A DNA stretch of 64,000 nucleotides, taken from contig NC_090183.1 of the NCBI RefSeq assembly GCF_024679245.1, positions 24,871,355 through 24,935,354 on the forward strand, in the 5' to 3' direction. The notes beneath the pieces are model-generated. The model ran no database searches, was not told the DNA's origin, and saw only the letters and a program-made list of their open reading frames with translations. The DNA is from Pseudorasbora parva (Eukaryota; Chordata; Actinopteri; Cypriniformes; Gobionidae). The number at the start of each line of letters is the position of its first letter. Position 1 is the stretch's first letter. Made by a program: the position numbers and the translations under genes. Shown in pieces: positions 7,535-62,513 of the stretch.

Positions 7535-8085
7535 GAAAAGAGATTTTTTAAAACATCAGGGAGCTTTCAATTACCACCCCTCCCTCCCCTTAACTTTAGA
7601 GGCTTCAGTAGTTATTCAAACTTAATTGAACAAGACTAGAGTTTTTCCAGTGGTCTTTTCCTCAGTCTAATCTACTCTGAATAACTCTGGTTCAGAACTT
7701 TTATGTTATTATTTATTCATAGCAAAAATTCAAAACAGTGACAATAACAGTATTGTAATTAATGATAAACAGCTGTGTGGAGGTGAGATGACGCGTTTAC
7801 GTGTTGACGATGAGATACCTGTTTACTTCCGTTGGTGAAACTCTTCTGACAACACACTTTAACAGCAGGTGAAAATCTCTCACAATCAAGGAATCATGCA
7901 GAGGAAAACAATAGACAGTAAAAACAAAAGAGAGTTGGAAAGAAAGTGAATACTTACACTTAATAGAGACAATTTAGAGTTGTGTTAGAAAGTGAATATT
8001 CAAATTTAATCTAGAGACAATTTAGAATTATGTTAATCCATTCCCATCCAAAGTTTTAGTTTAATAATGCTTAGTCATTCTGTAT

Positions 8086-8295
<210 letters not shown>

Positions 8296-9716: not shown

Positions 9717-9817
<101 letters not shown>

Positions 9818-9917
9818 TTCTTTTTTTTTTTAAATCACTTCTGCAACCATAGTCCTGTACATCTCCCAGGGCGAGGGGGGTGACGTTGAGGAGGGTGTCG
9901 AGCAAAGAAATGCTCAC

Positions 9918-10052
<135 letters not shown>

Positions 10053-10287
10053 TTTACTGCAACAAAAGCTTATTTAACCTGAGGTTTATACACCTCGGAT
10101 CCCTGGCCTCCTTCCAAGGTCCCATTAAGAGAGTGGCCGCTACCTAATCAACAGAAGCACCTCTTCATCAATACATTATTAACAAGCCTGCTAGAATACA
10201 ACGGCCCTCCTCTGGGAATAGAGCTAACAAGAGACAGCCAGAATGCAGCGAGTAAGGGAGATATAACAGTATACACAGACAAGAGGT

Positions 10288-10487
10288 NNNNNNNNNNNNN
10301 NNNNNNNNNNNNNNNNNNNNNNNNNNNNNNNNNNNNNNNNNNNNNNNNNNNNNNNNNNNNNNNNNNNNNNNNNNNNNNNNNNNNNNNNNNNNNNNNNNNN
10401 NNNNNNNNNNNNNNNNNNNNNNNNNNNNNNNNNNNNNNNNNNNNNNNNNNNNNNNNNNNNNNNNNNNNNNNNNNNNNNNNNNNNNNN
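10288..10487. other. Assembly gap (200 N)
   Basis: Exactly 200 N bases. A round number suggests a placeholder of unknown true length. Confidence 0.99.
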
Positions 10488-11053
10488 GAAAAGAGATTTT
10501 TTAAAACATCAGGGAGCTTTCAATTACCACCCCTCCCTCCCCTTAACTTTAGAGGCTTCAGTAGTTATTCAAACTTAATTGAACAAGACTAGAGTTTTTC
10601 CAGTGGTCTTTTCCTCAGTCTAATCTACTCTGAATAACTCTGGTTCAGAACTTTTATGTTATTATTTATTCATAGCAAAAATTCAAAACAGTGACAATAA
10701 CAGTATTGTAATTAATGATAAACAGCTGTGTGGAGGTGAGATGACGCGTTTACGTGTTGACGACGAGATACCTGTTTACTTCCGTTGGTGAAACTCTTCT
10801 GACAACACACTTTAACAGACACTTTAACAGCAGGTGAAAAACTCTCACAATCAAGGAATCATGCAGAGGAAAACAATAGACAGTAAAAACAAAAGAGAGT
10901 TGGAAAAAAAAAGTGAATACTTACACTTAATAGAGACAATTTAGAGTTGTGTTAGAAAGTGAATATTCAAATTTAACCTAGAGACAATTTAGAATTATGT
11001 TAATCCATTCCCATCCAAAGTTTTAGTTTAATAATGCTTAGTCATTCTGTATG

Positions 11054-11258
<205 letters not shown>

Positions 11259-12682
11259 TGTTGGCTCAAGAATGTGTTTGCAAACACAACTGCAATTAAA
11301 ACAGATGAGATTGACGGCATAAAATCTTCCTCCAGTCTACTCCTCAATTTAGGCCAGTGAGTGTTCAACAAAACAATGAAAACTATCAAAAATCCGCTCA
11401 TTATAAAACCCTACTTTAAGCAAATCAAAATCAGCATCAAATCAGCTGGCAATAAGTTGACAACGCAGGAAAGCCATGTTTATGTGACATTTTGAAATGA
11501 TCAGGTTTGCTCCAGTCTTGACGTCAAAACATCTTGACTGATCCAAAATATCGGTGGGAAACTGTCAGGAGTGATATTGTGCTATCTTACCCTCATCTCT
11601 GCAGTTCCTGCAGGTGCAGCGTGATTTTTAAGCATCCAGCTTCTCATTCAGCTCTATGAGATGAGGACACATTTGTACATACATGGAGCAAGTTGAAGGG
11701 TACAATTGTTTTTTTTTTTTAACCTACTCCCCATCAAAACACCCACTCTTGCTGGATTTGCACCGACAACAAGGACTGATGGGAGCAATTGTTTTTGTAA
11801 TAATTCACAGATTTAGGAACGATTGCTAATTCCTACATCCAATGTATTGTGGCATGTTCCTGTTACGGCCAGATACACAGATTAGGCTTTATTCATTAAA
11901 CACAGGCAGAATAAAGATACGAGTAAACTGTTTGTAAATACATTCCCATGTACATTTTCCCATTGAATAATTTGATGTGCGACTCAAACAGAAATTAATT
12001 TTGTTTAATAGAAAATGTCCACTGAGTGCCCTTGTTCAAGTACATGCTGAAAACGATTAAAAATAAAAGAATGATAATAATAATAAACAAGGATTTTTTT
12101 ACATGCATCAATAATACACGAAAAAGCCTTTGTGTGTTCTCCATTTGTTTTCATTAGTTTTGTATCTCAAGTCTCTGTTGATCGGATTCATGTTTCAAAA
12201 CTGCTTGTTTTCAAATATAATATATAAATACATTTGACCTGACTTAAAATCTATTTATTTTTCTTCTTTCAGTTGTATTGAAAACCAGTTGAGAGTGCAG
12301 GTTTGCAATGTTAATACAGGTAAACAAAGGATCTGCTTAACAGGACTATTCCCTCCAGAATGATGTTTCATGTGTATTACAAGTTTCGGCTTGTTTCTGC
12401 AACACACACTGGCAGCACTGTTTGTTTCATTTTGCATTTTTAGGTGATGATGCCACAAATGTACCTGCAAGACTTCTGTAAAAGCAGTTGCTGTTGTAGT
12501 GCGGCAGAGGAAGGAAAATAAAAGATATTCTCACCATGCTCCTGTCACATGCTCACTGACAGCAATTTTGATGCAGCAACAATAGCTTCTGATTCCTTTA
12601 ACAGCTGCTAATGTAGTTTCCTTTTATTCAGTGATCCAAGAGCAAGGCGTCAAATAAAACCCTGCTTTTTCCTTTCTTTAGA

Positions 12683-12823
<141 letters not shown>

Positions 12824-12922
12824 TTTTTATTTTTTTTAAATCACTTCTGCAACCATAGTCCTTTACATCTCCCAGGGCGAGGGGGTGACGTTGAGGAGGG
12901 TGTCGAGCAAAGAAATGCTCAC

Positions 12923-13054
<132 letters not shown>

Positions 13055-13284
13055 TGCAACAAAAGTTTATTTAACCTGAGGTTTATACACCTCGGATCCC
13101 TGGCCTCCTTCCAGGGTCCCATTATGAGAGTGGCCGCTACCTAATCAACAGAAGCACCTCTTCATCAATACATTATTAACAAGCCTGCTAGAATGCAACG
13201 GCCCTCCTCTGGGAATAGAGCTAACAAGAGACAGCCAGAATGCAGCGAGTAAGGGAGATATAACAGTATACACAGACAAGAGGT

Positions 13285-16877: not shown

Positions 16878-17232
16878 ATTAGCGTTACTGCTGAAGTCTG
16901 ATTAGTACAGCCAGGCTTCATGTTTCCACCAGCATACTTATAACATCTAGATACAGTGGGTACGGAAAGTATTCAGACCCCGTTATATTTTTCACTCTTT
17001 GTTATATTGCAACCAAAAAAGAAAAACTGAAATATCACATGGTCCTAAGTATTCAGACCATTTGCTCAGTATTTAGTAGAAGCACCCTTTTTATCCAATA
17101 CAGCTGTCACAGGCCGGAGCGGACCGCCACTTAGCGCGAGTCCCGCTCCTCCCCTAGTTTCCACCCCGAGGAGGTCCCAGAAACACCCCAATGACTAGAC
17201 GGACGAGGAACAGGGTAAGTTAAGAACCAATA

Positions 17233-17238
17233 TTTATT
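17233..17238 (-). terminator. Candidate polyadenylation signal in the 3' LTR
   Basis: The minus strand reads AATAAA, about 130 bases before the LTR end. This is where an R/U5-proximal cleavage signal is expected. The same hexamer occurs at the equivalent place in the 5' LTR. Confidence 0.45.
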
Positions 17239-17402
17239 AACTTTAAAAGAGATTTATGAAGAGGGGAAGGGGGAGGGGATACAAAAAAAAAGGGGAACAC
17301 CAGTCCTCCAGGACTGGGGCCTTGGTTTCTCGAGTCGCTCCTGGTTTTCGACCGATCTTCCCAGCTCTCTCTCTCTCGTCGTCATTCACGCCTAGGTTTA
17401 CA

Positions 17403-18175
17403 GGTGAGTGTACAGGCGGTACACTTGGCTCTTAGCTTTGGGCATGCAGGTGAGTATACAGGACCATACACTGGGCTCTTAGCTTTGGACGTGCAGGTGA
17501 GTATACAGGACAGTACACTGGGCTCTTAGCTCTGGGCATACAGGTGAGTATACAGGCGGTACACTGGGCTCTTAGCTCTGGGCATACAGGTGAGTATACA
17601 GGCGGTACACTGGGCTCTTAGCTGTGGGCATACAGGTGAGTATACAGGACCATACACTGGGCTCTTAGCTTTGGACGTGCAGGTGAGTATACAGGACAGT
17701 ACACTGGGCTCTTAGCTCTGGGCATACAGGTGAGTATACAGGCGGTACACTGGGCTCTTAGCTCTGGGCATACAGGTGAGTATACAGGCGGTACACTGGG
17801 CTCTTAGCTCTGGGCATACAGGTGAGTATACAGGCGGTACACTGGGCTCTTAGCTCTGGGCATACAGGTGAGTATACAGGCGGTACACTGGGCTCTTAGC
17901 TTTGGGCATACAGGTGAGTATACAGGCGGTACACTGGGCTCGTAGCTTTGGGCATACAGGTGAGTATACAGGCGGTACACTGGGCTCTTAGCTCTGGGCA
18001 TACAGGTGAGTATACAGGCGGTACACTGGGCTCTTAGCTTTGGGGCATACAGGTGAGTATACAGGCGGTACACTGGGCTCTTAGCTTTGGGCATACAGGT
18101 GAGTATACAGGCGGTACGCTGGGCTCTTAGCTTTGGGCATACAGGTGAGTATACAGGCGGTACACTGGGCTCTTT
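17403..18175. repeat. 46-bp tandem repeat array in the 3' LTR (17 copies)
   Basis: The unit can be read as ACAGGTGAGTATACAGG, then a (CGGT/ACCA/ACAG)-type variable part, then ACACTGGGCTCTTAGCTCTG and GGCAT. I counted 17 occurrences of the GGTGAGT core. Several unit variants recur in the same order in both LTRs, showing that the array was copied as a block at reverse transcription. Confidence 0.92.
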
Positions 18176-19016
18176 GTTTCGACTCACAGATCCGTAGTCA
18201 GGCAGAAGTCGGCTTTAGTGCTTCCTCTGATACAGGGCTTTCTCTTCGACCTAGGGAGGGATCGCTGACAACGTTTGATAATTCTTCGGTGGACACACAT
18301 CAAAGGAAAGACTCACCCACTGCACTCCACACACACTCACGGTGAATTAGGGTCAGGATCACCACATTGGGCCGGGAGACAAGTCCTGGGTAGTAGAAAG
18401 GATCAGTGCAAAAGATGTCCATATAAAAACGTCAAGACCACGATCTTTCCACACGCTCCTTCCTCTTTTCAATACATTCCCAATGCCTTCTTAATGTAAA
18501 CAATTTCTCCAAGGCAGTAACAATACATATCAACACAGTGGTTTCAACCATGAATGCTTCCAACACTTAGCTCATGTTTTCTTCAGCCCAATACTTCAGT
18601 CTCGCTTCGCCCGGTCTGTATCATCCGCCTCGGGGCGTCCCTCTGATCCACCGGTCGCTCCGTCTCACCCACCGCGATCGCCCAAATCAACTGCGCTCAC
18701 CCTGCAGCGTTGGCCCGAATCAACTTCACCCCCCCCGCCCCCGTTTGCCGGGATCACTCCACCCTTTACAGGGGTCAACTCTCTCCTTGCCCGAATCAAC
18801 TCTCCCCTCCTGTTCTCCCAGTACCTTCTTTATATGCCTCCTTTTGCCCTAATTTGTCCAACCATCGATCGCCACATCCATGCACACAGCTGTTCCCAAT
18901 AACACGCTCTTTTCGTTGCCCGGAGTTACCGGAACTGATCGTGTGTTCCATGTGCAATGGTCCGGGCGGACCATTTCCGCCATTTTAAGTTCCGCCCTTT
19001 AAGGTCACTCTGTGAC

Positions 19017-19028
19017 ATCCTCCCCCGC
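19017..19028 (-). promoter_or_regulatory. Polypurine tract
   Basis: Directly abutting the 3' LTR the minus strand reads GGCGGGGGAGGA. A purine run at this exact place is the plus-strand DNA primer of LTR retrotransposons. It also fixes the 3' LTR boundary. Confidence 0.8.
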
Positions 19029-19064
19029 CAAACCGTTCTAGTCCCTAGAACGGGAATCACCCGC

Positions 19065-20864
19065 CTAGTCGCCATATCGTACAGGGGGTCGCCCTCGGTT
19101 CTCCCGTTGGGACCGTCGAGGTGGCGAGACTGGGTCCACCCTCGCGGCCACAGTCTCAGGGTCCCTTGGCACCACGGCCCAGCCCCCAATCCACGGGGCT
19201 GCAGGCACAGGCTCCCTTGGGGCCTCTTCCACGGGTCTGGGATAATTTGGACAGGGACGAATCATGTTTCGATGGACCACTCGGTCCGGCCCAGCCTTTC
19301 CTTCTGGCCGGATCGTATATACCGGTTGTCCCGGCCGCTGCTGGCCCTGGATCACATACGGGATAGCTTCCCACCGATCGCTCAACTTTCCTTTCCCTTG
19401 CCGCCGGTTGTCTCGGACCAACACTCGTTCTCCTGGAAGCAGGGGGGCCTCTCGGGCCGTTCGATCATACAACCTCTTATTTTTCTCTGCAGCACCCTGT
19501 ATTCGCTTGGTAACTTGTTCATAGGCGAAGTGGAGGCGTTGATGGTGGCGCCCCACCCACTCCGTCAGACTCACATCCTCCCCAGCCGCGGGTGTCCCCA
19601 ACATCAAGTCCGTTGGTAACCGCACATGCCTGCCAAACATCAGGTAAGTCGGGGCATACCCCGTAGTGCTGTGTACACTATTATTATACGCCTGGACTAA
19701 GGTTGGTAAAGCACTCACCCAGTCACTCTGATGCTCTTGGTCCAGCGTGCCCATTAAGCCCAGCAAGGTCTGATTGAGTCGTTCACACCCACCGTTCCCC
19801 TGGGGATGATAGGACGTGGTGTGAGTTTTCGTGCACCCATATAATTGGCATAGTTCCTTGATCACTCGGGACTCGAAATTTGGCCCTTGATCAGAATGCA
19901 GAAACTCAGGGCACCCAAACGGCTGAAAGACGGCTCTCCATAAGGCAGTGGCAGTGGTGTTGGCAGTCTGGTCCAGAGTTGGAACGGCCCAGGCGTACTT
20001 GGTGAATAGATCAGTAATTACGAGGATATTCTGATAACGATCCGTTGGTCTACCAAACGTCAGAAAGTCCATGGCCACAATGTGAAGGGGGGCTTTTGCC
20101 TTTATCGGGACCATCGGGGCTCTGAGCTCCTTCCTAGATTTAAACAAGGTACAACGAGGACATGCCTGGATGAAGGTACTTACGGATGCTTCCAGCCCTG
20201 GCCAATAGAAGTGCCTGCGCAATAGGGATACCGTCTTCTCTTGCCCTTGATGTCCCAACTGGGCATGATATGCCATCAGCAACGCTTGTACCTGGCCCTC
20301 CGGTACCACAATCTGGCAGATCTCCTCTCCCAGTCCCGAGTCTCTGATGGTCCTACACATCACCCCATCTCTCAATCGGAGCTTAGTCCACTGTCCCAGT
20401 AATTTTCGCCCCACCCCCACTTGAACCTGTCTTTCCGCCTGTGTTGGTCCTCGGCCCTGTTCCAGCCATCGGCTCAGCGTTCTCAACCCGCTGTCTTCTT
20501 GCTGCCGCTCTCTCCAGCGGCGAGGGTCCCAACCCCAGCTTATCGGCACCGCCTCTCGTTGGCCTCCCGGCGTGGTGTCTCCATACCGTTCGGTCAGAAA
20601 GTTAAACACAGACTGTGCGGTGGCCCGGACGGCTTCTGGGGCGGCCTGGACTTCTCGTCGGGCTTCCCCCTCTAGGGAGTTCAACACAAACTGTTGATAT
20701 TGGGACGCACTTAACCCTTGGATTCCGGCCAGATACTCTATCTGGGCTTTCCACTCAGAAAATCTCACCTCTGACTCTGCTCCGCCATACTTCTGGATCC
20801 AGGGGGTGCCCATGAACACGGGCATGACTCGGGGTGGGGCCTCAGGTACCTCGTCGTCGGCCAT
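19065..20864 (-). CDS. Gag-integrase fusion ORF of Ty3/gypsy element
   Basis: This is a single intact ORF of 599 codons from the first ATG (20864, MADDEVPEAP); an in-frame TTG lies seven codons upstream. Residue numbers below count from that TTG. Residues about 8-105 resemble the start of a Ty3-type Gag (KYGGAESEVRFSEW). From about 112 the protein is the spacer before integrase, then integrase. The zinc-binding module is H207, H212, C242, C245. The catalytic triad is D273, D332 and E368 with 35 residues between the last two, in AMDFLTF, SDQGPNF and GGCERLNQTL. A basic C-terminal region (GERVLV, then RRSQRENRGR) follows. Everything between early Gag and the end of RNase H is deleted, yet the frame is kept. 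A functional integrase is possible; a functional Gag is not. Not alone competent for reverse transcription. Confidence 0.9.
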   Translation of the reverse strand: MADDEVPEAPPRVMPVFMGTPWIQKYGGAESEVRFSEWKAQIEYLAGIQGLSASQYQQFVLNSLEGEARREVQAAPEAVRATAQSVFNFLTERYGDTTPGGQREAVPISWGWDPRRWRERQQEDSGLRTLSRWLEQGRGPTQAERQVQVGVGRKLLGQWTKLRLRDGVMCRTIRDSGLGEEICQIVVPEGQVQALLMAYHAQLGHQGQEKTVSLLRRHFYWPGLEASVSTFIQACPRCTLFKSRKELRAPMVPIKAKAPLHIVAMDFLTFGRPTDRYQNILVITDLFTKYAWAVPTLDQTANTTATALWRAVFQPFGCPEFLHSDQGPNFESRVIKELCQLYGCTKTHTTSYHPQGNGGCERLNQTLLGLMGTLDQEHQSDWVSALPTLVQAYNNSVHSTTGYAPTYLMFGRHVRLPTDLMLGTPAAGEDVSLTEWVGRHHQRLHFAYEQVTKRIQGAAEKNKRLYDRTAREAPLLPGERVLVRDNRRQGKGKLSDRWEAIPYVIQGQQRPGQPVYTIRPEGKAGPDRVVHRNMIRPCPNYPRPVEEAPREPVPAAPWIGGWAVVPRDPETVAARVDPVSPPRRSQRENRGRPPVRYGD

Positions 20865-20895
20865 TGGGGAATTTCGGTCGCTCAACTCGAGGTGG

Positions 20896-20914
20896 AACCC
20901 TGCCGACTACGCCA
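20896..20914 (-). promoter_or_regulatory. Primer binding site, tRNA-Ser type
   Basis: Five bases inside the 5' LTR the minus strand reads TGGCGTAGTCGGCAGGGTT. This is complementary to the CCA end, acceptor stem and T-arm of eukaryotic tRNA-Ser (genes ending CCTGCCGACTACG), with one mismatch or wobble near its inner end. It places the start of minus-strand DNA synthesis and fixes the 5' LTR boundary at 20920. Confidence 0.75.
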
Positions 20915-21210
20915 AAATCTGTCACAGGCCGGAGCGGACCGCCACTTAGCGCGAGTCCCGCTCCTCCCCTAGTTTCCACCCCGAGGAGGTCCCAGAAACA
21001 CCCCAATGACCAGACGGACGAGGAACAGGGTAAGTTAAGAACCAATATTTATTAACTTTAAAAGAGATTTATGAAGAGGGGAAGGGGGAGGGGATACTAA
21101 AAAAAAGGGGAACACCAGTCCTCCAGGACTGGGGCCTTGGTTTCTCGAGTCGCTCCTGGTTTTCGACCGATCTTCCCAGCTCTCTCTCTCTCGTCGTCGT
21201 TCACGCCTAG

Positions 21211-21945
21211 GTTTACAGGTGAGTGTACAGGCGGTACACTGGGCTCTTAGCTTTGGGCATGCAGGTGAGTATACAGGACCATACACTGGGCTCTTAGCTT
21301 TGGACGTGCAGGTGAGTATACAGGACAGTACACTGGGCTCTTAGCTCTGGGCATACAGGTGAGTATACAGGCGGTACACTGGGCTCTTAGCTCTGGGCAT
21401 ACAGGTGAGTATACAGGCGGTACACTGGGCTCTTAGCTGTGGGCATACAGGTGAGTATACAGGACCATACACTGGGCTCTTAGCTTTGGACGTGCAGGTG
21501 AGTATACAGGACAGTACACTGGGCTCTTAGCTCTGGGCATACAGGTGAGTATACAGGCGGTACACTGGGCTCTTAGCTCTGGGCATACAGGTGAGTATAC
21601 AGGCGGTACACTGGGCTCTTAGCTCTGGGCATACAGGTGAGTATACAGGCGGTACACTGGGCTCTTAGCTTTGGGCATACAGGTGAGTGTACAGGCAGTA
21701 CACTGGGCTCGTAGCTTTGGGCATACAGGTGAGTATACAGGCGGTACACTGGGCTCTTAGCTCTGGGCATACAGGTGAGTATACAGGCGGTACACTGGGC
21801 TCTTAGCTTTGGGGCATACAGGTGAGTATACAGGCGGTACACTGGGCTCTTAGCTTTGGGCATACAGGTGAGTATACAGGCGGTACGCTGGGCTCTTAGC
21901 TTTGGGCATACAGGTGAGTATACAGGCGGTACACTGGGCTCTTTG
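21211..21945. repeat. 46-bp tandem repeat array in the 5' LTR (16 copies)
   Basis: Same unit as at 17403-18175, with 16 GGTGAGT cores counted. The one-unit difference from the 3' LTR arose after insertion or during the last round of reverse transcription. Confidence 0.9.
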
Positions 21946-22611
21946 TTTCGACTCACAGATCCGTAGTCAGGCAGAAGTCGGCTTTAGTGCTTCCTCTGAT
22001 ACAGGGCTTTCTCTTCGACCTAGGGAGGGATCGCTGACAACGTTTGATAATTCTTCGGTGGACACACATCAAAGGAAAGACTCACCCACTGCACTCCACA
22101 CACACTCACGGTGAATTAGGGTCAGGATCACCACATTGGGCCGGGAGACAAGTCCTGGGTAGTAGAAAGGATCAGTGCAAAAGATGTCCATATAAAAACG
22201 TCAAGACCACGATCTTTCCACACGCTCCTTCCTCTTTTCAATACATTCCCAATGCCTTCTTAATGTAAACAATTTCTCCAAGGCAGTAACAATACATATC
22301 AACACAGTGGTTTCAACCATGAATGCTTCCAACACTTAGCTCATGTTTTCTTCAGCCCAATACTTCAGTCTCGCTTCGCCCGGTCTGTATCATCCGCCTC
22401 GGGGCGTCCCTCTGATCCACCGGTCGCTCCGTCTCACCCACCGCGATCGCCCAAATCAACTGCGCTCACCCTGCAGCGTTGGCCCGAATCAACTTCACCC
22501 CCCCCCCCCCCCCCCCCCCGCCCCCGTTTGCCGGGATCACTCCACCCTTTACAGGGGTCAACTCTCTCCTTGCCCGAATCAACTCTCCCCTCCTGTTCTC
22601 CCAGTACCTTC

Positions 22612-22619
22612 TTTATATG
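22612..22619 (-). promoter_or_regulatory. Candidate TATA box in the 5' LTR
   Basis: The minus strand reads CATATAAAG within a GC-rich context, about 180 bases inside the LTR start. It is the best TATA-like match there and is identical in the 3' LTR. Promoter activity is inferred. Confidence 0.4.
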
Positions 22620-22800
22620 CCTCCTTTTGCCCTAATTTGTCCAACCATCGATCGCCACATCCATGCACACAGCTGTTCCCAATAACACGCTCTTTTCGTT
22701 GCCCGGAGTTACCGGAACTGATCGTGTGTTCCATGTGCAATGGTCCGGGCGGACCATTTCCGCCATTTTAAGTTCCGCCCTTTAAGGTCACTCTGTGACA

Positions 22801-45099: not shown

Positions 45100-46990
45100 G
45101 TCACAGGCTGGAGAATACTTTGTATTTGAGGTGTTGTTGGTTATACAAGAATAATACAAACAATCAATACATAAAAGCCTTTCTGAACAGAAAAGTCTTC
45201 AGCTCAGCTTTAAACTGGTCCAAGCTCTGTACCACTCTCAGCTCACTGGAGAGGAGGTTCCAAAGCCACGGTGCAGCCGAGCAGAAAGCTTGGTCCCCCA
45301 TTGTATGAAGCCTGGTGGTGAGGACTTGAAGAAGCAGGTGGCCTGAAGATCTAAGGGTGCAGGTGGAGGATTTCAGAGTGATGAGTTCCTGTAGATATGG
45401 AGGTGCATGCCCGGTGATGCATTTATGTGTGAGCAGGAGGATTTTGTAGTTGATCCGGGATGAAACAGGGAGCCAGTGCAGTGAGTGTAGAATAGGAGTC
45501 ATGTGATCATATTTACGGACTCTCATAAGGACCCTGGCAGAGCTGTTCTGGATGTATTGAAGCATGTAACTTCTCTGCATCTGGAAAGGTTAAAAGGGGA
45601 CAGAGTTTGGAGATGTTTCGACGGTGGTGGAAGGAAGATTTCCAAATGTGCTTAATGTGGTCATTGAAAGTCAGCTGTGGGTCAAACCGAACCCCTAGAT
45701 TTGTGACTGAGGAGGAGAAAGTGATAAGGGAAAAGAGTGGATCTGATGAGGGGTGCCAGCCAGCAGTGCTTCAGTTTTACTGGAGTTCAGCTGGATGAAG
45801 TTAATTCCGATCCATACCTTAATCTCCTCAAGACATGTGGGGAGTCGTGACTGAGCTATGGAGGTGTTCTGGGCAGTTTTGATATAAAGTTGCATGTCAT
45901 CAGCATAACAGTGAAAAGATAGTCCATGTCTGCTGATGACAGGACCGAGGGGAAGCATGTAGAGGATGAATAAGATTGGGCCGAGAACTGACCCCCGCGG
46001 AACACCACGTGTAACAGGGAGCAGCCTGGACTCACATTCTCCCAAAATAACACGCTCAGTCCTGTCAGAAAGGTAGGACTGAAACCATTGCAGTGCTGCT
46101 CCAGATAGTCCAACTGTATTGTGGAGGCGTTCCAGGAGGATGGTATGGTCCACTGTGTTGAATGCCGCTGATAGGTCAAGGAGAATGAACAGTGATGGTG
46201 ATCCTGAAGCTGTCATAAGAAGGCAATTTGTCACCCTAAGCAGAGCAGTTTCGGTGCTGTGGGCAGAGCGAAAGTCTGATTGAAATCTCTCAAATAAGTT
46301 GTTCTTTTTTAGACTGTGGACTGTGACTGTGACTGTGGAGCTGAGAGGTGGCTTCCTTCTCTAGAACCTTTGACAGGAAGGTGAGGTTGGAGATCGGCCT
46401 TTAATTAGCAAGGACCTCCGGGTCTAGGGTTGGTTTCTTGAGTATAGGACGGATGACAACAGCTTTAAGGGCAAAAGGGATGTGGCCAGTTTTGAGATAG
46501 AGATTAACAAACTGGGTGATGATTGGGCTGACCATGGGAATGAACGACTTGAGCACAACAGTCGGGATGGGATCCAAGGTATAGGTGGACGGCTTCATTT
46601 TTTTTGATGGTTTCCTCAACGTGGCTCTGCTGAACCTCAGTAAAGTGTGGAATGGATGGCAATCTCCTGGACGAGTGGTTTGAGGATGGTGGAGACAGGG
46701 AGGAAGAGCCAGATACAGAAGAGCGAATGTTATTGACTTTAGATCTAAAAAAGTCAATAAAGCTGTTGCATCGCTCCACTGTAGTTTCAATGGATGAAGA
46801 TGACTTCGGCTTCAGGAGATTGTTTACTGTGGAAAAAAGCTGCTTAGAGTTTTCAGTATTTTTATTGATGAGGTTGGAATAGAATTGCGAGCGCGCACCC
46901 CTCAAGGACTTAATATAAGCTTTTTGATAGTCACGGAAGGCAAGCTTGTGAACAGTTCGGTTAATAATAGACATACTGAAATGATTAGAC
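45100..46990 (-). mobile_element. Decayed L2/CR1-type LINE, 5'-truncated
   Basis: Minus-strand frames read in order through most of the RT region. 46974-46504 is the linker before RT (AFRDYQKAYIKSLRGARSQF, FIDFFRSKVNNIRSS). 46790-46401 holds LDPIPTVVLKSF and the fingers. 46234-45695 holds LLDLSAAFNTVDHTILLERL, then GVPRGSVLGPILFILYMLPL and CYADDMQLYI. 45580-45164 is the C-terminal block (LHWLPVSSRINYKILLLTHK, then GHAPPYLQELI). Unlike the 3-kb copy it keeps the motif A Asp and the YADD, but frameshifts and stops between blocks kill it. The endonuclease is missing. The 3' end lies near 45100. Confidence 0.85.
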
Positions 46991-56469: not shown

Positions 56470-56710
56470 GAACGTCTCGGGTTACTATTGTAACCCTTGT
56501 TCCCTGAGAGGGAACGAGACACTGCGTCGTCGAGTGACGACACTCTGGGAACGCCCCCAGCGTGACGGCTCTGAAGTATGAATGAAATCAGCCACCAATC
56601 CGATTGGTGCAACGTCGTGACGTAACCGGCGACGGCGTACACGGAAGCTATAAGAAGGCGCCGCTCCAAACAACAGACAGCCTTTGCGATGAAGCGAGCG
56701 CTCTACGTGT
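56470..56710. repeat. Left (3') inverted terminal repeat of the DIRS-like element
   Basis: It matches the complement of 61616-61829 over about 210 bp, for example CTGCGTCGTCGAGTGACGAC and ACCAATCCGATTGGTGCAAC. It carries an extra ~27 bp at the outer end with a GGGTTAC/GTAACCC hairpin, followed by a TTCCCT/AGGGAA hairpin. Confidence 0.92.
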
Positions 56711-56724
56711 AGGTGTGGCGACGA

Positions 56725-56837
56725 GACGCAGTGTCTCGTTCCCTCTCAGGGAACAAGGGTTACAATAGTAACCCGAGACGTTCCCTATATCGAGGGAACT
56801 CAACACTGCGTCGTCGAGTGACGACACTCTGGGAACG
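56725..56837. repeat. Internal complementary region (ICR)
   Basis: The left half (about 56725-56776) is the reverse complement of the left terminus (56470-56527). The right half (about 56773-56837) is the reverse complement of the right terminus (about 61775-61829). The two meet at ACGTTCCC with GTTC shared. The ICR therefore spells the junction of the two joined ends, which is the diagnostic DIRS feature and the template for making closed circles. Confidence 0.92.
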
Positions 56838-56901
56838 TCAATACCCACTATGCCACACCGAGACACGCCCATCCTGGTGTGAAGCTGGAGCCCAGGCACA
56901 C

Positions 56902-58461
56902 TCAGGACGCAAGCACTCTAGCACCCGGCGTAGCCGGGAGGTCCAGCTTATAAAATCTTATAAAGGTGTGTGGATTAGCCCAACCCGCCGCCTCACATAT
57001 CTCAATAAGTGAGGCTCCCGAAAGGAGGGCCACCGAGGAGGCCAAGCCCCTCGTAGAGTGAGCCCTCACGGCCATGGGTGAAGGCATATTGCGCACCCGA
57101 TAAGCCGTGGCTATCGCCTGCACGATCCAGTTACTAATAGTCTGTCTCGCCGCAGGCAACCCTTTCTTAGGGGGGCCAAAGCACACCAGAAGCTGGTCCG
57201 ATTTCCTCCATTGAGCCGACCTGTCTAGATAGATCCTCAATGCCCTAACCGGGCAGAGCAGGTGCAGCCTAGCTTCCTCTGCCGTCGCGTGAGGCGGAGG
57301 ATGAAAAGCCTGAAGAAATACTGACCCCATCCCTGAAGATGGGACCTTGGGCACGTAACCCGGTCTGGGATGCAAGATAGCTTTCACCCCGCCCGGGGCA
57401 AACTCCAAGCAAGTAGGCGTGACCGCCAATGCCTGGAGGTCCCCCACTCTCCTCAGAGAAGTGATGGCGAGGAGAAATGCTACCTTCAGGGTCAGATTTC
57501 TCGCCTCAGCCGACTCCAACGGTTCGAAGGGGGCCTCAGCCAACCCTTCCAGAACCACTGCCAGGTCCCAAGCCGGGACTCTGGGATGAGCCGCAGGCCT
57601 CAATCTCCTAGCCCCACGGAGAAAACGCACAACCAAGTGGTGTCTACCCAAAGGGCCCCCTTCCAAAGGCGAGTGGAAAGCCCCTATGGCTGCCACATAC
57701 ACCTTCAGAGTGGATGGGGTCAAACCAGCGGAGAAACGGTCTTGGAGGAACTCCAGTACTGAAGTGACTGCGCAGTCAACTGGGTCCACCCCCCTTTCTC
57801 TACACCAGCTAGTGAAGACATTCCACTTTAGGCTATACAGTTTCCTCGTAGAGGGAGCCCTAGAGCTGAGAATGGTCTCAACGACCTCTTGTGGCAGACC
57901 CTCCTCTAGGTACTGTGCCCCCTCAGAGGCCAGACCCAGAGGTTCTACAACTCTGGCCTGGGGTGGAAAATCACACCCCCTGCCTGAGACAGCAAGTCCC
58001 TCCTCAGAGGGACCTGCCACGGGGTTCCGTCTAGAAGTGCCACAATGTCGGAGAACCAAGCTCGGGACGGCCACCGGGGTGCCACTAATAGGAGGCTGAC
58101 GCCCTCCCGGCGGACTCGCTCTAGAACTCCCGGGAGCAGAACGATCGGGGGAAATGCGTACAGACGCTGCCTCGGCCACGTCTGTGTCATGGCATCCAGC
58201 CCCAACGGGGCCGGAGGCCTGAGGCTGAACCACAGTGGGCAGTGGGTCGTTTCTACGGAAGCAAACAGATCCACTTCCACTGGGCCGAACCTCTTGCACA
58301 TGGCCTCCACCACCTCTGGGTGGAGCCGCCACTCCCCGGGCCTCAGCCCCTGCCTCGACAGGACATCTGCTCCCTGGTTCTGGTCCCCTGGGACATACAT
58401 CGCTCTGAGAGACGACAGTTTCCCCTGGGACCACAGGAGGATCTGAAGCGCCAACCTGCAT
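56902..58461 (-). CDS. Tyrosine recombinase of the DIRS-like element
   Basis: The open frame runs from ATG at 58785 (627 codons) to 56902. Residue numbers below count from there; the coordinates given start at the last ATG before the domain (residue 109). The recombinase domain starts at about residue 280, after the end of ORF2. A core-binding part (STRKLYSLKWNVFTSWCRER) is followed by the catalytic part. R445/R446 lie in ITSLRRVGDL, H576 and R579 in AHSTRG, W602/H606 in GWANPH, and Y612 in IRFYKLD. This gives a complete R-H-x-x-R-(W/H)-Y set for circle insertion. No Met lies between 110 and 485, so the first ~170-280 residues overlap ORF2 in another frame and are probably not conserved protein. 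Frameshifting from ORF2 is the alternative. Confidence 0.88.
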   Translation of the reverse strand: MQVGASDPPVVPGETVVSQSDVCPRGPEPGSRCPVEAGAEARGVAAPPRGGGGHVQEVRPSGSGSVCFRRNDPLPTVVQPQASGPVGAGCHDTDVAEAASVRISPDRSAPGSSRASPPGGRQPPISGTPVAVPSLVLRHCGTSRRNPVAGPSEEGLAVSGRGCDFPPQARVVEPLGLASEGAQYLEEGLPQEVVETILSSRAPSTRKLYSLKWNVFTSWCRERGVDPVDCAVTSVLEFLQDRFSAGLTPSTLKVYVAAIGAFHSPLEGGPLGRHHLVVRFLRGARRLRPAAHPRVPAWDLAVVLEGLAEAPFEPLESAEARNLTLKVAFLLAITSLRRVGDLQALAVTPTCLEFAPGGVKAILHPRPGYVPKVPSSGMGSVFLQAFHPPPHATAEEARLHLLCPVRALRIYLDRSAQWRKSDQLLVCFGPPKKGLPAARQTISNWIVQAIATAYRVRNMPSPMAVRAHSTRGLASSVALLSGASLIEICEAAGWANPHTFIRFYKLDLPATPGARVLAS

Positions 58462-59891
58462 AGTGGGCGTGACCTCAGACCCCCCTGGTGATTGAGATAC
58501 GATACCACCGACGTATTGTCGGAACGTATCAGGACATGGTGGCCGTGAAGGTCTGGGAGAAAGCTCCTCAAAGCTTTGTAAACCGCCAACATTTCCAAGC
58601 AATTTATGTGCCAGGAGGAATGTTGGGGTCCCCATGAACCCCTCATGAACCGGCCTTCCATGACCGCGCCCCAGCCCGTGAGGGAGGCGTCTGTTGAAAG
58701 GATCTTCCTGCAACATAACGCTCCTAACACAGGCCCTTGGGACAGGAACCTCGGATCCTTCCATATAACGAGGGAACGAAGGCATCTACGCGTTACCCTG
58801 ATCATACGGAAAGGTTTTCCCCTCGAGGAAAACCCCTTGGTTCCTAGCCACCACTGGAGGGGCCTCATGTATAGCAGACCCAACGGAATTACATTGGATG
58901 CTGCTGCCATGAGTCCCAGCAGTCTCTGAAACTGCTTCACAGTGCGGCTGTGGCCTAGCTTCACCCCTGAGACCTCCGCCAGTATAGAACCCACCCGTGC
59001 GGGAGACATGCTCGCCCGCATCGAGGTTGAGTCCCATACCACCCCGAGGAACGTGGTCCTCTGGGCGGGTATCAACACGCTCTTGGCCGTGTTCAGTCTC
59101 AGCCCCAAGCACCTGAGATGGGCTAAAACGTCATCTCGATGCCGAATCGCCATCTCGCGCGACTTTGCCATAATGAGCCAGTCGTCGATGTAATTCAGCA
59201 CACGGATGCCCTGCAGCCTCATAGGGGCCAGAGCTGCATCCATGCACTTCGTGAAGGTGCGAGGGGAAAGAGCTAGACCGAAAGGAAGCACCCGATATTG
59301 GTACGCTTCGCCCCCGAAAGCGAACCTCAGGAACTTCCTGTGGGCAGGAAGGATGGAGACATGAAAATATGCGTCCTTTAGATCTATCGTGACGAACCAG
59401 TCCTCAAACTGGATCAGATTCACGATCATTTGAATTGTGAGCATCTTGAACCTGAATCTCCTCAGAGACCGATTCAAGTACCTCAGATCTAATATTGGAC
59501 GTAAGCCTCCACCCTTTTTGGGAACAATGAAATAACGGCTGTAAAAGCCCGACTCCCTGTCTGGCGGAGGGATTTTCTCTATCGCCCCCTTGACCAGCAG
59601 AGACTGCACTTCTTGTTCCATAACCTGCCTCTGGGCCGGGGGGACCACAGTCCAGACCACCCCGCTGAACTTCGGTGGTGGAACTCTGAACTGCAATCTG
59701 TACCCCCTTCCCACTGTACTCAGGACCCAAGCAGAAATATTCGGGAGGCACATCCATGCGCCGATATATTCTACTAGGGGAACCAGCCTCTCGAGGCTGG
59801 TCTCTGGTACCCACCGAACCCCCTGCCCGACCCCCTGAAGCGGCCACCCGGCAGAGCTTAGTCGGGGAGGATTTTCGGTGTGCGCACACAT
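57945..59891 (-). CDS. RT-RNase H polyprotein (ORF2) of the DIRS-like element
   Basis: The 680-codon frame counted from GTG at 59987 has its first ATG at residue 33 (59891). The frame is already open from about 60134, overlapping the end of ORF1 by about 60 bp, so frameshift expression is possible. RT: FIVPKKGGGLRPILDLR (153-169), motif A IDLKDAY with D202, LPFGLALSPRTFTK, and YIDD at 266-269. RNase H: D433 in STDAS, E465 in CLEML, D490 in RSDNT, D541 in GADVLSR, a full DEDD set. Residues about 566-680 (VEVDLFAS, then YAFPPI and LLLVAPRWP) lie where DIRS elements carry a Dam-like methyltransferase; no DPPY-type motif is evident. The frame stays open for 12 codons after the TAG stop. Confidence 0.92.
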   Translation of the reverse strand: MCAHTENPPRLSSAGWPLQGVGQGVRWVPETSLERLVPLVEYIGAWMCLPNISAWVLSTVGRGYRLQFRVPPPKFSGVVWTVVPPAQRQVMEQEVQSLLVKGAIEKIPPPDRESGFYSRYFIVPKKGGGLRPILDLRYLNRSLRRFRFKMLTIQMIVNLIQFEDWFVTIDLKDAYFHVSILPAHRKFLRFAFGGEAYQYRVLPFGLALSPRTFTKCMDAALAPMRLQGIRVLNYIDDWLIMAKSREMAIRHRDDVLAHLRCLGLRLNTAKSVLIPAQRTTFLGVVWDSTSMRASMSPARVGSILAEVSGVKLGHSRTVKQFQRLLGLMAAASNVIPLGLLYMRPLQWWLGTKGFSSRGKPFRMIRVTRRCLRSLVIWKDPRFLSQGPVLGALCCRKILSTDASLTGWGAVMEGRFMRGSWGPQHSSWHINCLEMLAVYKALRSFLPDLHGHHVLIRSDNTSVVSYLNHQGGLRSRPLCRLALQILLWSQGKLSSLRAMYVPGDQNQGADVLSRQGLRPGEWRLHPEVVEAMCKRFGPVEVDLFASVETTHCPLWFSLRPPAPLGLDAMTQTWPRQRLYAFPPIVLLPGVLERVRREGVSLLLVAPRWPSRAWFSDIVALLDGTPWQVPLRRDLLSQAGGVIFHPRPEL

Positions 59892-60073
59892 TCGCTGCCC
59901 CGCCGCAGGTCGATTTCGAGGCGGCTGGGACGGCGCACGTACGCGGGAAACCGATGAGGCCCGAAGCGTTGTTAACGGCGGGAACACAACATCGATTTCC
60001 CCAGAGCTGCGGGCTCGGAACGACCTCGGTCGTCCGCCCCCGGGAGGGCCAGCTCTGAGCGATCCTGCCGCAG

Positions 60074-61555
60074 CTAGGACCGCTTGCCAGAAGCCTTCTT
60101 CGCCTGAAGGACTTCCCTCAAGTCGCCCTTCGGCTTAGAAGACTTCTGGCGAGAACGTCGCCTCCTTTGCCAGGCTCCCTCGGGAGGGGCGCGGGAAGCG
60201 ACGCTCTCCTTTTGCGCCTGTCTGTGGGCGCTGGTGGAGGGCCGGGACTGGCCACCAGAGACCTCCCTGCTGGCTACAGGAGGCCCCTGGCGGCGAGGGA
60301 GATACTGCCGGAAAGCCGCCGACTGTTTCCTCACCTCCTGGAATCTCTCGACAACGCTATTGACTGCGTCGCCGAAGAGACCCACAGGAGCTATCGGGGA
60401 ATCCAGAAGGAAGGATTTCTCCTTCTCCTTCATCCCCGACAGGTTTAACCACAGGTGCCTCTCCACGCACACCATGCCAGCCATAGAGCGGCCGATAGCA
60501 CGGGCCGTCTCTTTGGTGACGCGGAGAGACAAGTCGGTAGCTTTCCGCAGCTCTGTAATATCGTCCGGAGACGGACCCTCTCCCTCATCTAGCTCTTTGA
60601 GGAGCTCAGCTTGGTATGCCTGCAGTACCGCCATGGTGTGCAGGCAACTACCAGCTCTACCGGCCGCTCGATATGCCCTGCCCACCAGGGACGACGTGTC
60701 CCTGCATGGCTTGGTGGGCAGGACAGGGGCTTTCAGGGACGCTGCTGCCTCGGGAGACAGATAGCTCGCTAACGCCTCCTCGACGCGAGGCAGCGTCCCA
60801 TAACCAGCCTCAGCCGCGCCCACGACACACCCGAAGTCGAGAACTGGGGGTGTCGATAGGCGCGACGAGTATGGTTTTCCCCATGATTTGCACAACTCGT
60901 TATGCAAATCCGGGAAAAACGGCAAGCCCCTGCGTGGCGGCTGAGCACGCTTTTTGAAGAAGCGTCCATCCAACCTGCTCACAGGCTGGACTTCCACCTC
61001 TTCCTGTGGCCAGTCGATACTGAGTTTGGCCACAGCACGTGTCAGCACGTCCACCAGCTCTTCTTGAGCGGGAGAGTGAAGAGGTGAATTCACCTGCACT
61101 CCGCCCGCCTCCAGGCTGAACTGATCTGATCCCTCGGAATCAGACAGCATCAGCACTGGGTTATCAACCTCGTGGGAAGAAGCCGCAGCGCGGGCTTCCT
61201 CACGAGGCGGAAGAGCGTCTGAATCATCGGACGAGGATTGGGAAGATGCCTCAGCATGCCCGCCTCCCGTCGCGAGATCCAGTTGTGAGCCCCAGGATCT
61301 ACGCCGCCGCGCTGCCTCAACCGACGCGGGACCAGACCCACGGGGCTCGCGAGCCTGACCGCCTTCGGTGAAGACGGCCAGCCGTGAGCGCAGCACCCGG
61401 AGCGGCAGCCTCTCACACTCGCTGCAGGCGGCACCCTCAAGCGCCGCCTGAGCATGCTGCGCTCCGAGACACTGCACACACAGCTGGTGTGTGTCCGAGC
61501 CCGTGATAAAGCGCGGGCACGGATGAACACACCTTCTAAATTGCTCGCTTGCCAT
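60074..61555 (-). CDS. Gag-like ORF1 of the DIRS-like element
   Basis: 493 codons from the first ATG (61555, MASEQFRRC). That ATG has A at -3 and G at +4, a strong initiation context; the frame is open from a TTG at 61606. Near the N-terminus a Cys/His cluster, CVQCLGAQH then CSEC, could bind zinc. The middle is acidic and Ser-rich (SSQSSSDDSD). The region from about 230 to 440 (RGLPFFPDLHNEL, then TKETARAIGRSMAGMV) is the conserved-looking core, presumed capsid-like. The C-terminus is strongly basic (RRRRSRQKSSKPKG), suited to RNA binding. Identification rests mainly on position before RT and general DIRS Gag character, since Gag proteins diverge fast. Confidence 0.82.
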   Translation of the reverse strand: MASEQFRRCVHPCPRFITGSDTHQLCVQCLGAQHAQAALEGAACSECERLPLRVLRSRLAVFTEGGQAREPRGSGPASVEAARRRRSWGSQLDLATGGGHAEASSQSSSDDSDALPPREEARAAASSHEVDNPVLMLSDSEGSDQFSLEAGGVQVNSPLHSPAQEELVDVLTRAVAKLSIDWPQEEVEVQPVSRLDGRFFKKRAQPPRRGLPFFPDLHNELCKSWGKPYSSRLSTPPVLDFGCVVGAAEAGYGTLPRVEEALASYLSPEAAASLKAPVLPTKPCRDTSSLVGRAYRAAGRAGSCLHTMAVLQAYQAELLKELDEGEGPSPDDITELRKATDLSLRVTKETARAIGRSMAGMVCVERHLWLNLSGMKEKEKSFLLDSPIAPVGLFGDAVNSVVERFQEVRKQSAAFRQYLPRRQGPPVASREVSGGQSRPSTSAHRQAQKESVASRAPPEGAWQRRRRSRQKSSKPKGDLREVLQAKKASGKRS

Positions 61556-61615
61556 GCTTATTCGAAAAAGGGACTGATATTCAGACAGACAACAGTAAAT
61601 AGACAAACAATATTC

Positions 61616-61829
61616 ACACAGAGCGCCTCGCTGAAGAGCAAAGACTGTCTGTTGTTTGGGGCGGCGCCTTCTTATAGCTTCCGTGTACGCCGTCGCCGGT
61701 TACGTCACGACGTTGCACCAATCGGATTGGTGGCTGATTTCATTCATACTTCAGAGCCGTCACGCTGGGGGCGTTCCCAGAGTGTCGTCACTCGACGACG
61801 CAGTGTTGAGTTCCCTCGATATAGGGAAC
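61616..61829. repeat. Right (5') inverted terminal repeat of the DIRS-like element
   Basis: Complement of the left repeat. It lacks the outer ~27 bp hairpin and ends CGATATAGGGAAC. It runs to about 60 bp before the ORF1 ATG, so it should contain or adjoin the element's promoter; no TATA box is assigned. Confidence 0.92.
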
Positions 61830-61963: not shown

Positions 61964-62513
61964 TAGCCTAGAAATCTAGACGCACCCTAGCGGCAGCACA
62001 TCTAATCTGCTGTGAGTGTCGTCTTGCAACTCTCAATACACTTCTGAGCTGTAATCGCCTAACTCTGGTCGGGCCAATCACTTCGTGAGTCATGGAGTCG
62101 CATATAGAGTCGGTGGGCGGGGCTTAACATAATGAAGGCCGAGTTGCGTTTGCGTGCTTCTAGTAAACACAGAATCTGGCGAACGGCGGTCTTTCCAATC
62201 AACTTTGACCGCGACTCTGGAAGACTGGAGTTAAGCTTTTCTCTGAGAAAAGAACAAAGAACGGCACTGAAGTCATTCTTAAAAAGGGAAGATGTGTTCT
62301 GAGTTTTGCCAACCGGATACAGCGAAAGTTTAATCTATCAACTAGCTCTGCTTCACCTTCGTTGCTCTGGTTGGTTGTAGTGCCATCCAATTGCGTGCAC
62401 GCCGTGCAGAGGGAGTCTGAAAGACAACCGTTTATCCCGCCCCTCAGATTGAGCCCTGTCAATGGTGAGTTTCCAGACCAAACATCTTGATGTGTGTCTG
62501 GCTTGTCAGGCTA
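61964..62513. mobile_element. Inverted-repeat transposon with 9-bp target duplication
   Basis: 550 bp. The left end TAGCCTAGAAATCTAGACGC and the complement of the right end TAGCCTGACAAGCCAGACAC are imperfect inverted repeats. AGCCAATAC occurs perfectly on both sides (61955-61963 and 62514-62522). A 9-bp duplication fits Mutator-like elements, or Merlin (8-9 bp). The 87-codon open frame inside (62199-62462, minus) resembles no transposase, so it is non-autonomous. Confidence 0.85.

What the first reader, a model, noticed from the sequence alone, without database searches (positions are those of the whole stretch)
56470..61829. A structurally complete DIRS-like retrotransposon
Inverted terminal repeats, ICR, Gag-like ORF, RT with YIDD, RNase H with all four acidic residues, and recombinase with R-HxxR-W/H-Y are present in one 5.36-kb unit. 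Eukaryotic copies are usually broken. Open frames throughout suggest recent activity and make this the best candidate here for a functioning mobile system.
Basis: partly seen in the sequence, partly recalled or inferred. Interest (0 to 1): 0.75.

Follow-up and report, generated by a model that had tools for sequence, protein, structure and literature searches.

The report
Recently multiplied fish DIRS retrotransposon copy
This is a full-length DIRS-type jumping gene in a small cyprinid fish, one of many near-identical recent copies; it is a known kind of element, this particular copy carries stop codons that most of the other copies examined lack, and its family keeps a second reading frame open across about two thousand bases that already encode another protein.

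Summary
The anatomy is real. A DIRS1-like retrotransposon lies on the minus strand at 56471-61829 (5359 nt), with GTT at both ends, inverted repeats, a right extension, a 113-nt internal complementary region identical to both ends, and gag, RT-RNase H and tyrosine-recombinase (YR) frames with catalytic residues intact. The family expanded recently: 116 exact junction sites; 29 of 40 copies examined are full length, mean pairwise difference 0.43% (best hits, so biased low). Insertions prefer A-GTT-TTY, without target duplication; one empty site agrees. But "open frames throughout" fails here: pol has a stop seen in 1 of 29 copies, and the family's 1071-codon YR frame, which crosses all of pol, has three stops; it is uninterrupted in 17 of 22 indel-free copies. 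In four fish families and a mussel element that frame holds 0-3 stops within pol (21-32 expected), at fixed phase to pol, and opens at gag's end, although its amino acids are not demonstrably constrained. I infer that YR is reached from gag's end by recoding, reinitiation or splicing. Long pol/YR overlap is already published: a new member of a known kind.

The parts
56471..61829 (-). whole DIRS1-like element, 5359 nt, GTT...GTT on the element strand (AAC...AAC on +)
   Evidence: same ends in the other full-length copies, 3 of 29 ending in GAT
61627..61829 (-). left (5') inverted terminal repeat
56471..56698 (-). right (3') inverted terminal repeat; its outer 28 nt (56471-56498) are the right extension, absent from the left repeat
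56725..56837 (-). internal complementary region: 56725-56782 identical (inverted) to the 3' end, 56780-56837 identical (inverted) to the 5' end, sharing the GTT junction 56780-56782
   Evidence: junction pattern at 116 exact sites in the genome
61827..61829 (-). 5' terminal GTT
   Evidence: GTT in 29 of 29 full-length copies
56471..56473 (-). 3' terminal GTT
   Evidence: GTT in 26 and GAT in 3 of 29 copies
60074..61555 (-). gag ORF from its ATG (493 aa); a profile of 28 sequences matches LAP2-alpha (2v0x), E 2.6e-05
57945..60134 (-). pol open frame (RT, RNase H, C-terminal region); overlaps the end of gag by 61 nt; ends at a stop seen in 1 of 29 copies, the family's usual pol stop lying at 57906-57908
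59181..59192 (-). RT catalytic YIDD
56902..58785 (-). YR ORF as it stands in this copy (627 aa from ATG); recombinase domain about 56902-57933
56902..60117 (-). family-wide long YR frame (1071 codons) crossing all of pol; in this copy interrupted at 58786-58788, 59131-59133 and 59404-59406
57049..57060 (-). YR HxxR box (HSTR)
56950..56952 (-). YR Tyr612

Best explanation
The stretch is one copy of a recently amplified DIRS1-like retrotransposon family of a cyprinid fish (Pseudorasbora parva). How the family most likely works: a transcript that begins in the left terminal repeat is reverse-transcribed; the missing outer ends are rewritten from the ICR, giving a joined GTT junction; the tyrosine recombinase recombines that GTT with a GTT in the genome (preferring A-GTT-TTY), so GTT ends up on both sides and no target duplication is made. 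Gag is made directly; pol and YR are both reached from the end of gag in two different frames, and the YR frame is read through the whole pol region (about 700 codons) before the recombinase domain. This copy carries one early stop in pol (13 codons before the usual stop) and three stops in the long YR frame, so it is probably not autonomous, although its family is young. Shown: anatomy, copy number, target sites, one empty site, stop exclusion in the YR frame, lesions of this copy. Inferred: ICR templating, joined intermediate and integration by YR (from the published DIRS-1 model), entry into pol and YR at gag's end, inactivity of this copy.
For: Anatomy. Proteins; Cre chains rank first for the YR model. 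Copies: 40 of 40 scored hits (the window's own included) 99-100% identical over 1501 nt, out of 4602 candidates; 116 exact and 284 near (up to 3 mismatches) junction sites, reversed control 0; 29 of 40 full length, mean pairwise difference 0.43%. ICR against ends: no difference in 22 of 29 copies, 10 differences in 3364 compared positions. Target: -1 A 19/29, +1 T 23/29, +2 T 26/29, +3 C or T 24/29; flank match of 3 nt or more in 1 of 29; empty site with a single GTT. Stops in the YR frame within pol: window copy 3 against about 21 permuted, families C, D, E 1 each against 26.5, 23.1, 21.3, mussel 0 against 32.2. Controls: the +1 frame of pol and both alternative frames of gag show no significant depletion (lowest P 0.11, family C gag +2). 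Lesions.
Against: No transcript, protein or transposition data were available. The copies are the best-scoring hits, so youth is overestimated. The YR structure model has mean pLDDT 53.8 and no Foldseek match reaches E 0.001. No phylogenetic tree was built. A shorter YR from the ATG at 58785 could be functional, in which case three of the four stops would not matter. In families D and E and in the mussel element the YR frame has an ATG close to gag's end, so ordinary initiation is possible there; only family C strongly, and A weakly (P 0.03-0.04), lacks one for long. Families C, D and E are represented by one copy each, chosen among matches without a stop in pol; a further fetched copy (L050) had shifted frames and was left out of the permutation test.
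Confidence: 0.85

Rival explanations
1. This copy is still autonomous: YR is translated as the 627-residue protein from the ATG at 58785, and the lost pol tail is dispensable.
For: The 627-aa ORF holds the entire recombinase domain with its catalytic residues; no ICR-to-end differences, so the copy is young.
Against: The four stops are found in 1, 1, 1 and 2 of 29 copies. In this family and in others the YR frame is kept free of stops far upstream of that ATG, which initiation there would not require. 19 of 21 aligned relatives continue past the place of the pol stop in the same frame; the other 2 have a shifted tail.
Confidence: 0.2
2. The long YR frame is reached by splicing, by a separate shorter transcript or by initiation at an ATG near gag's end, not by frameshifting or readthrough.
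For: The frame of gag relative to YR differs between families (+1 in A, D and the mussel; 0, directly behind the gag stop, in C and E), which splicing would tolerate. In D, E and the mussel an ATG lies in the YR frame at or near gag's end. No slippery heptamer was noticed at the gag ends by eye (not scanned).
Against: In family C no ATG occurs in the YR frame for 460 codons behind the gag stop, yet there is no stop (13.9 expected). The frame opens within or directly behind gag's end in 5 of 5 elements. No splice data were available either way.
Confidence: 0.45
3. The stop-free YR frame is a by-product of base composition or pol codon usage and encodes nothing.
For: Fourfold sites of pol diverge about as freely as those of gag (0.55 against 0.60 for A-E; other pairs vary in both directions), so amino-acid constraint is not shown; similarity to the mussel element in the YR frame exceeds its null (z 3.3) no more than in the control frame (z 3.0).
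Against: Synonymous permutation keeps the pol protein and codon usage and still gives 21-32 stops; the +1 frame holds 45-62 stops per pol; gag shows no such effect.
Confidence: 0.03
4. It belongs to another YR or LTR superfamily (Ngaro, PAT, VIPER, Ty3).
For: RT and RNase H resemble Ty3 (4ol8, E 1.2e-22), and some relatives are labelled 'Transposon Ty3-G Gag-Pol'.
Against: Inverted repeats plus ICR, no split direct repeats, no integrase domain found, YR instead.
Confidence: 0.01

Closest known systems
DIRS1-like elements of fish: GaDIRS1, GaDIRS2 (stickleback), TnDIRS1a (Tetraodon), Table 3 of Piednoel et al. 2011 (PMC3266345; abstract, sections 3 and 10, and passages read)
   Same: GTT start, GTT or GAT end, AAC junction, right extension 26-27 nt there and 28 nt here, long pol/YR overlap, size 5322-5931 bp there and 5359 nt here, gag / RT-RH-MT / YR
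   Different: ICR halves 58 and 58 nt here against 36-46 and 56-57 there; conserved repeat part (144-148 nt there) somewhat longer here; sequences not aligned; this copy has near-private stops
cypriniform relatives in protein databases (named hits include Siphateles, Megalobrama, Leuciscus, Pimephales)
   Same: all three proteins; best hits over at least 97% of the query 76% (pol), 77% (YR), 80% (gag); a 372-aa YR fragment from a 1507-bp ENA contig has 11 differences
   Different: other families; many unnamed, or labelled uncharacterized or Ty3-G Gag-Pol; the three best hits just quoted come from sources that name no species
DIRS-1 of Dictyostelium discoideum (PMC5633606, passages read)
   Same: ITRs, ICR, three partly overlapping ORFs, YR; proposed ICR templating and circular cDNA
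   Different: other junction trinucleotide (PMC3266345, Table 3); reported there to insert preferentially into its own copies
LAP2-alpha domain of mammalian TMPO and ZNF451 (PMC4495291, abstract and passages read)
   Same: reported to derive from ORF1 (gag) of a DIRS1-like element; the gag profile here matches 2v0x
   Different: domesticated host protein, not a mobile element
DIRS-like element on contig NZ_CAHJWD020000217.1 (L001), filed under a Bathymodiolus brooksi symbiont genome
   Same: gag, pol and YR in the same order, same pol-to-YR phase, long YR frame over all of pol
   Different: 39% pol identity over 584 aligned residues

Membership tests
DIRS1-like superfamily (definition as in PMC3266345) | inverted terminal repeats | tested here: met
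DIRS1-like superfamily (definition as in PMC3266345) | ICR whose two halves are complementary to the two element ends and overlap on a 3-nt junction | tested here: met
   58 and 58 nt identical, sharing GTT
DIRS1-like superfamily (definition as in PMC3266345) | right (or left) extension complementary only to its ICR | tested here: met
   56471-56498, 28 nt, present in the ICR, absent from the left repeat
DIRS1-like superfamily (definition as in PMC3266345) | gag, RT-RNase H and YR encoded, no DDE integrase | tested here: met
   no Pfam integrase core among the three ORFs; Cre ranks first for a low-confidence YR model
DIRS1-like superfamily (definition as in PMC3266345) | MT (methyltransferase) domain behind RNase H | tested here: inconclusive
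   a conserved region follows RNase H, but no Pfam family matched it
DIRS1-like superfamily (definition as in PMC3266345) | insertion without target site duplication, at the junction trinucleotide | tested here: met
   29 copies, one empty site
DIRS1-like superfamily (definition as in PMC3266345) | RT placed in the DIRS1 clade by phylogeny | not tested
   no tree was built
DIRS1-like superfamily (definition as in PMC3266345) | circular or linear cDNA intermediate | not testable with these tools
   needs nucleic acid from the animal
Ngaro / PAT | split direct repeats | tested here: not met
   no direct repeat above 26 nt apart from the 46-nt ICR/ITR pair
Ty3/gypsy LTR retrotransposon | direct LTRs and DDE integrase | tested here: not met

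The most novel reading that the evidence does not exclude
In fish DIRS elements and in a mussel one, the recombinase is made as a roughly 1045-1100-codon product entered at the end of gag and read out of frame through the whole of pol: selection keeps some 700 codons of that frame free of stops while leaving its amino acids largely free. The element would run two competing entries at one place (to pol and to YR), with the pol-to-YR phase fixed and the gag frame interchangeable: a frame change in some families, gag-stop readthrough or reinitiation in others.
Probability: 0.4. Interest if true: 0.6.

Novelty: new member of a known kind. Interest (0 to 1): 0.38.

Why it matters
How DIRS elements express their recombinase is not settled in the papers I could read. 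A fish genome with several young, high-copy DIRS families gives dozens of comparable copies, a measured target preference, an empty site and a strong statistical constraint on the YR frame, which makes the expression question directly testable. For annotation: this copy should not be called a functioning element, and its relatives should not be filed as Ty3 Gag-Pol.

Tried and rejected
Relatives at DNA level were sought in viral contigs with four queries (no relative) and in phage records (no match); plasmids gave one distant reverse transcriptase on a Wolbachia record (32.6% over 26% of the query); genome contigs gave L001 (kept) and L002 (29%, query residues 121-335, not pursued).

Amino-acid conservation of the YR frame within pol: tested against the mussel element and rejected as evidence, because the control frame rose as much (z 3.3 against 3.0). 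Fourfold divergence was not consistently lower in pol than in gag or YR-only (order pol, gag, YR-only: A-E 0.55, 0.60, 0.69; A-C 0.76, 0.64, 0.84; A-D 0.66, 0.70, 0.72; E-C 0.65, 0.70, 0.82; E-D 0.76, 0.76, 0.83; C-D 0.62, 0.75, 0.67; against the mussel gag has only 2-9 sites). Pol lies below YR-only in all ten pairs and below gag in four of these six (equal in one, above in one); all are near saturation, so weak constraint is not excluded.

Structure prediction of YR and gag gave low confidence; the gag model was not used. In one search the long YR frame was read in the wrong phase; one search corrected this and the wrong column is not used. Rfam: no match. Palindromes at the ends were seen but not interpreted. 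Whether stop exclusion or recoding in DIRS has been reported: searches listed papers noting ORF overlap but, in the listings and passages seen, none testing selection on it; Malicki 2020 is not held, and Poulter and Butler 2015 was not looked up, so priority is not established. A search for Pseudorasbora parva genome papers on transposable elements found none.

Full report
WHAT IS THERE. The element occupies 56471-61829 on the minus strand. Read on its own strand it begins GTTCCC and ends GACGTT. The two terminal repeats are inverted (191-nt arms, 95% complementary); 200 of 209 aligned positions agree and 8 positions are gaps, most differences lying in the outer part and at the inner edge. The right repeat carries a 28-nt extension. 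The ICR at 56725-56837 consists of 58 nt identical, inverted, to the 3' end and 58 nt identical, inverted, to the 5' end, sharing GTT. That is the DIRS1-like arrangement described in PMC3266345 (sections 3 and 10 read); the three fish entries of its Table 3 have the same GTT start, a GTT or GAT end, an AAC junction, a right extension of 26-27 nt and a long ORF overlap.

PROTEINS. Gag (493 aa from its ATG) has no Pfam match, but a profile of 28 sequences matches LAP2-alpha (2v0x) at E 2.6e-05, as expected if that domain derives from ORF1 of a DIRS1-like element (PMC4495291, abstract and passages). Pol has RVT_1 and RNase H and matches Ty3 RT-RNase H structures. In the alignments the four RNase H acidic residues are present in 22 of 22 sequences, and the RT aspartates and the YR residues R446, H576, R579, W602 and Y612 are intact in this copy. 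YR alone matches no Pfam family well; of 29 aligned YR domains 15 match Phage_integrase at E up to 0.1 (best 0.0002), and the low-confidence structure model (pLDDT 53.8) finds Cre chains first (best E 1.3e-03, none at 0.001 or below). The named database relatives with the highest scores are mostly cypriniform fish.

HOST AND COPIES. The window is contig C12, 24871355-24935354, of a 1.2287-Gb assembly. Contig C17 is 45115010 bases long, the contig length given for protein P0249, labelled Pseudorasbora parva, and P0249 matches C17 at 100%; I take the host to be that fish (Cypriniformes). A 1501-nt pol piece gave 40 scored matches out of 4602 candidates, all 99-100% identical, the window's own included. 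The ICR junction occurs 116 times exactly and 284 times with up to 3 mismatches; the reversed control gave 0 in both. I fetched the 39 other scored places. Of these 39 plus the window copy, 29 are full length in one alignment within the fetched stretch; the other 11 are split or lack an end there. Among the 29 the mean pairwise difference is 0.43% (range 0.13-1.01%). Because these are the best hits to this copy, that figure is biased low. At recalled neutral rates of 3.5e-9 to 1e-8 per site and year it would mean very roughly 0.2-0.6 million years; no calibration was made.

THE ICR AS A CLOCK. In the published model the ends are rewritten from the ICR in each cycle (PMC5633606, passages; PMC3266345). 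In 22 of 29 copies both ends agree fully with the ICR; the other seven hold 10 differences in all, out of 3364 compared positions. Three of these copies are the ones ending in GAT. The window copy has none.

INTEGRATION SITES. All 29 copies start with GTT; 26 end with GTT and 3 with GAT. Position -1 is A in 19, +1 is T in 23, +2 is T in 26, +3 is C or T in 24 of 29 (T is 29% of the window). There is no target duplication (one 4-nt flank match in 29). For copy L038 an empty relative of the site lies in the window itself at 62279-62513 (80% over 239 columns, of which 24 lie upstream of the junction); its flanks joined with a single GTT align without a gap at the junction. That three copies keep GAT on the 3' side only suggests that the 3' trinucleotide comes from the target and the 5' one from the element (inference). 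An empty site for the window's own insertion was sought but the search did not complete.

THIS COPY IS DAMAGED. The pol frame stops at 57945-57947; this stop is in 1 of 29 copies, 13 codons before the stop that all 29 share, and 19 of 21 aligned relatives run on in the same frame (the other 2 have a shifted tail). The YR frame has stops at 58786, 59131 and 59404, present in 1, 1 and 2 of 29 copies. Of the 29 copies 22 have no indel in the coding span; in these gag is uninterrupted in 22, pol to its usual stop in 20, the long YR frame (element 1713-4927) in 17, and all three in 16. Uninterrupted copies thus exist; this is not one of them. Only 8 of its 5359 positions are private among the 29.

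A FRAME KEPT FREE OF STOPS ACROSS POL. Synonymous permutation keeps the pol protein and its codon usage and asks how many stops the other frames would have. In the window copy the YR frame holds 0 stops in the 280 pol codons that overlap the YR ORF (permuted 6.1, P 0.00085) and 3 in the 449 before it (permuted 15.1, 0 of 20000 as low). In one copy each of three other families of the same genome it holds 1 stop within pol (permuted 26.5, 23.1, 21.3), namely the one just before the YR frame opens, since the YR frames listed run uninterrupted for 1098, 1088 and 1052 codons. In the mussel element it holds 0 (permuted 32.2, sd 4.0). The +1 frame of pol and both alternative frames of gag are not significantly depleted (lowest P 0.11). 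A fourth fetched fish copy (L050, same gag family as L053) has shifted frames and was left out. Of 231 database proteins compared, 158 match the YR frame, and 30, 24 and 22 of them run in one match across the three places where this copy has stops. The pol-to-YR phase is the same in 5 of 5 elements, while gag is in one of two phases: YR is +1 to gag in A, D and the mussel, and lies directly behind the gag stop in gag's own frame in C and E. The YR frame opens within or directly behind gag's end in all five.

WHERE THE FRAME IS ENTERED. In family C the YR frame has no ATG for 460 codons behind the gag stop, yet no stop either (13.9 expected by synonymous redraw, none of 4000 redraws as low). 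In family A the first ATG comes 104 codons behind gag (0 stops, 3.0-3.1 expected, P 0.03-0.04). In E, D and the mussel an ATG lies 39, 5 and 0 codons behind gag's end, so they say nothing on this point (P 0.50, 0.79 and 1.0) (all). Entry from gag's end is thus likely; whether by frameshift, readthrough, reinitiation or splicing is open.

WHAT THE FRAME ENCODES. Against the mussel element the YR-frame similarity exceeds its null (z 3.3), but so does the control frame (z 3.0). Fourfold third positions of pol, which are first positions of YR codons, diverge about as much as those of gag and somewhat less than those of the YR-only part, all near saturation. So stops are excluded, but I cannot show that the amino acids matter. 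The simplest reading is a passage translated for the sake of what lies beyond it.

COMPARISON WITH WHAT IS KNOWN. The long overlap of pol and YR ORFs is in print (PMC3266345: half of 28 elements, the three fish entries of Table 3 included, none in Mollusca; ORF overlap also in PMC9210276, passages). Not met in the searches listed under Tried and rejected are the stop-exclusion test, the interchangeable gag phase, a molluscan case of full overlap and the target preference of this family. PMC3266345 reports 2091 DIRS1-like copies in 14 families in zebrafish, so a DIRS-rich cyprinid is not surprising. Hence: new member of a known kind, moderate interest.

Noticed in passing
window 17104-22800: Two direct repeats of at least about 1.9 kb (17104-19017 and 20919-22800; 99-100% in the two 289-300-nt stretches outside the satellite that were compared), each holding a 46-bp minisatellite (16.8 and 15.8 units), flank a single 606-aa ORF with integrase domains (rve, H2C2) and no reverse transcriptase match: looks like a non-autonomous Ty3/gypsy deletion derivative with minisatellite LTRs.
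   Followed up: partly
window 7535-13226: A tandem duplication of about 2.96 kb (7535-10229 and 10488-13226), 98-100% identical in five 300-nt stretches and 93% in one of 169 nt, including GATA, TG and TC microsatellites of different length.
   Followed up: partly
window 45695-46234, minus strand: Reverse transcriptase fragment (RVT_1, E 2.2e-21), probably of a LINE (not tested).
   Followed up: no
window 62279-62513: A repeat; a relative of it elsewhere in the genome (L038) holds a DIRS insertion, so this is an empty site.
   Followed up: yes
L001: A near-complete DIRS-like element in an assembly filed as a Bathymodiolus thiotrophic symbiont, presumably host mussel DNA (inference); its YR frame covers all of pol, whereas PMC3266345 reports no long overlap in Mollusca.
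   Followed up: partly
genome G000: Other DIRS families with many near-identical copies: 87 listed gag matches at 95-100% for one; in another search 19 of 70 listed pol matches share the same score of 786 bits.
   Followed up: partly
protein databases: Relatives of these proteins appear as 'Transposon Ty3-G Gag-Pol', as unrelated enzymes, and in bacterial MAGs (Aeromonas, Metamycoplasmataceae, Propionibacteriaceae): misannotation and probable contamination.
   Followed up: no
window 61810-61829, 56479-56515 and the ICR: Short perfect palindromes at both ends and in the ICR (GTTCCCT..AGGGAAC with 6- or 3-nt spacer, GGGTTAC-4 nt-GTAACCC); 20 hairpin entries (17 distinct sites) in the element against a mean of 2.6 entries in simple shuffles. 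Possible recombinase binding sites; not tested.
   Followed up: partly
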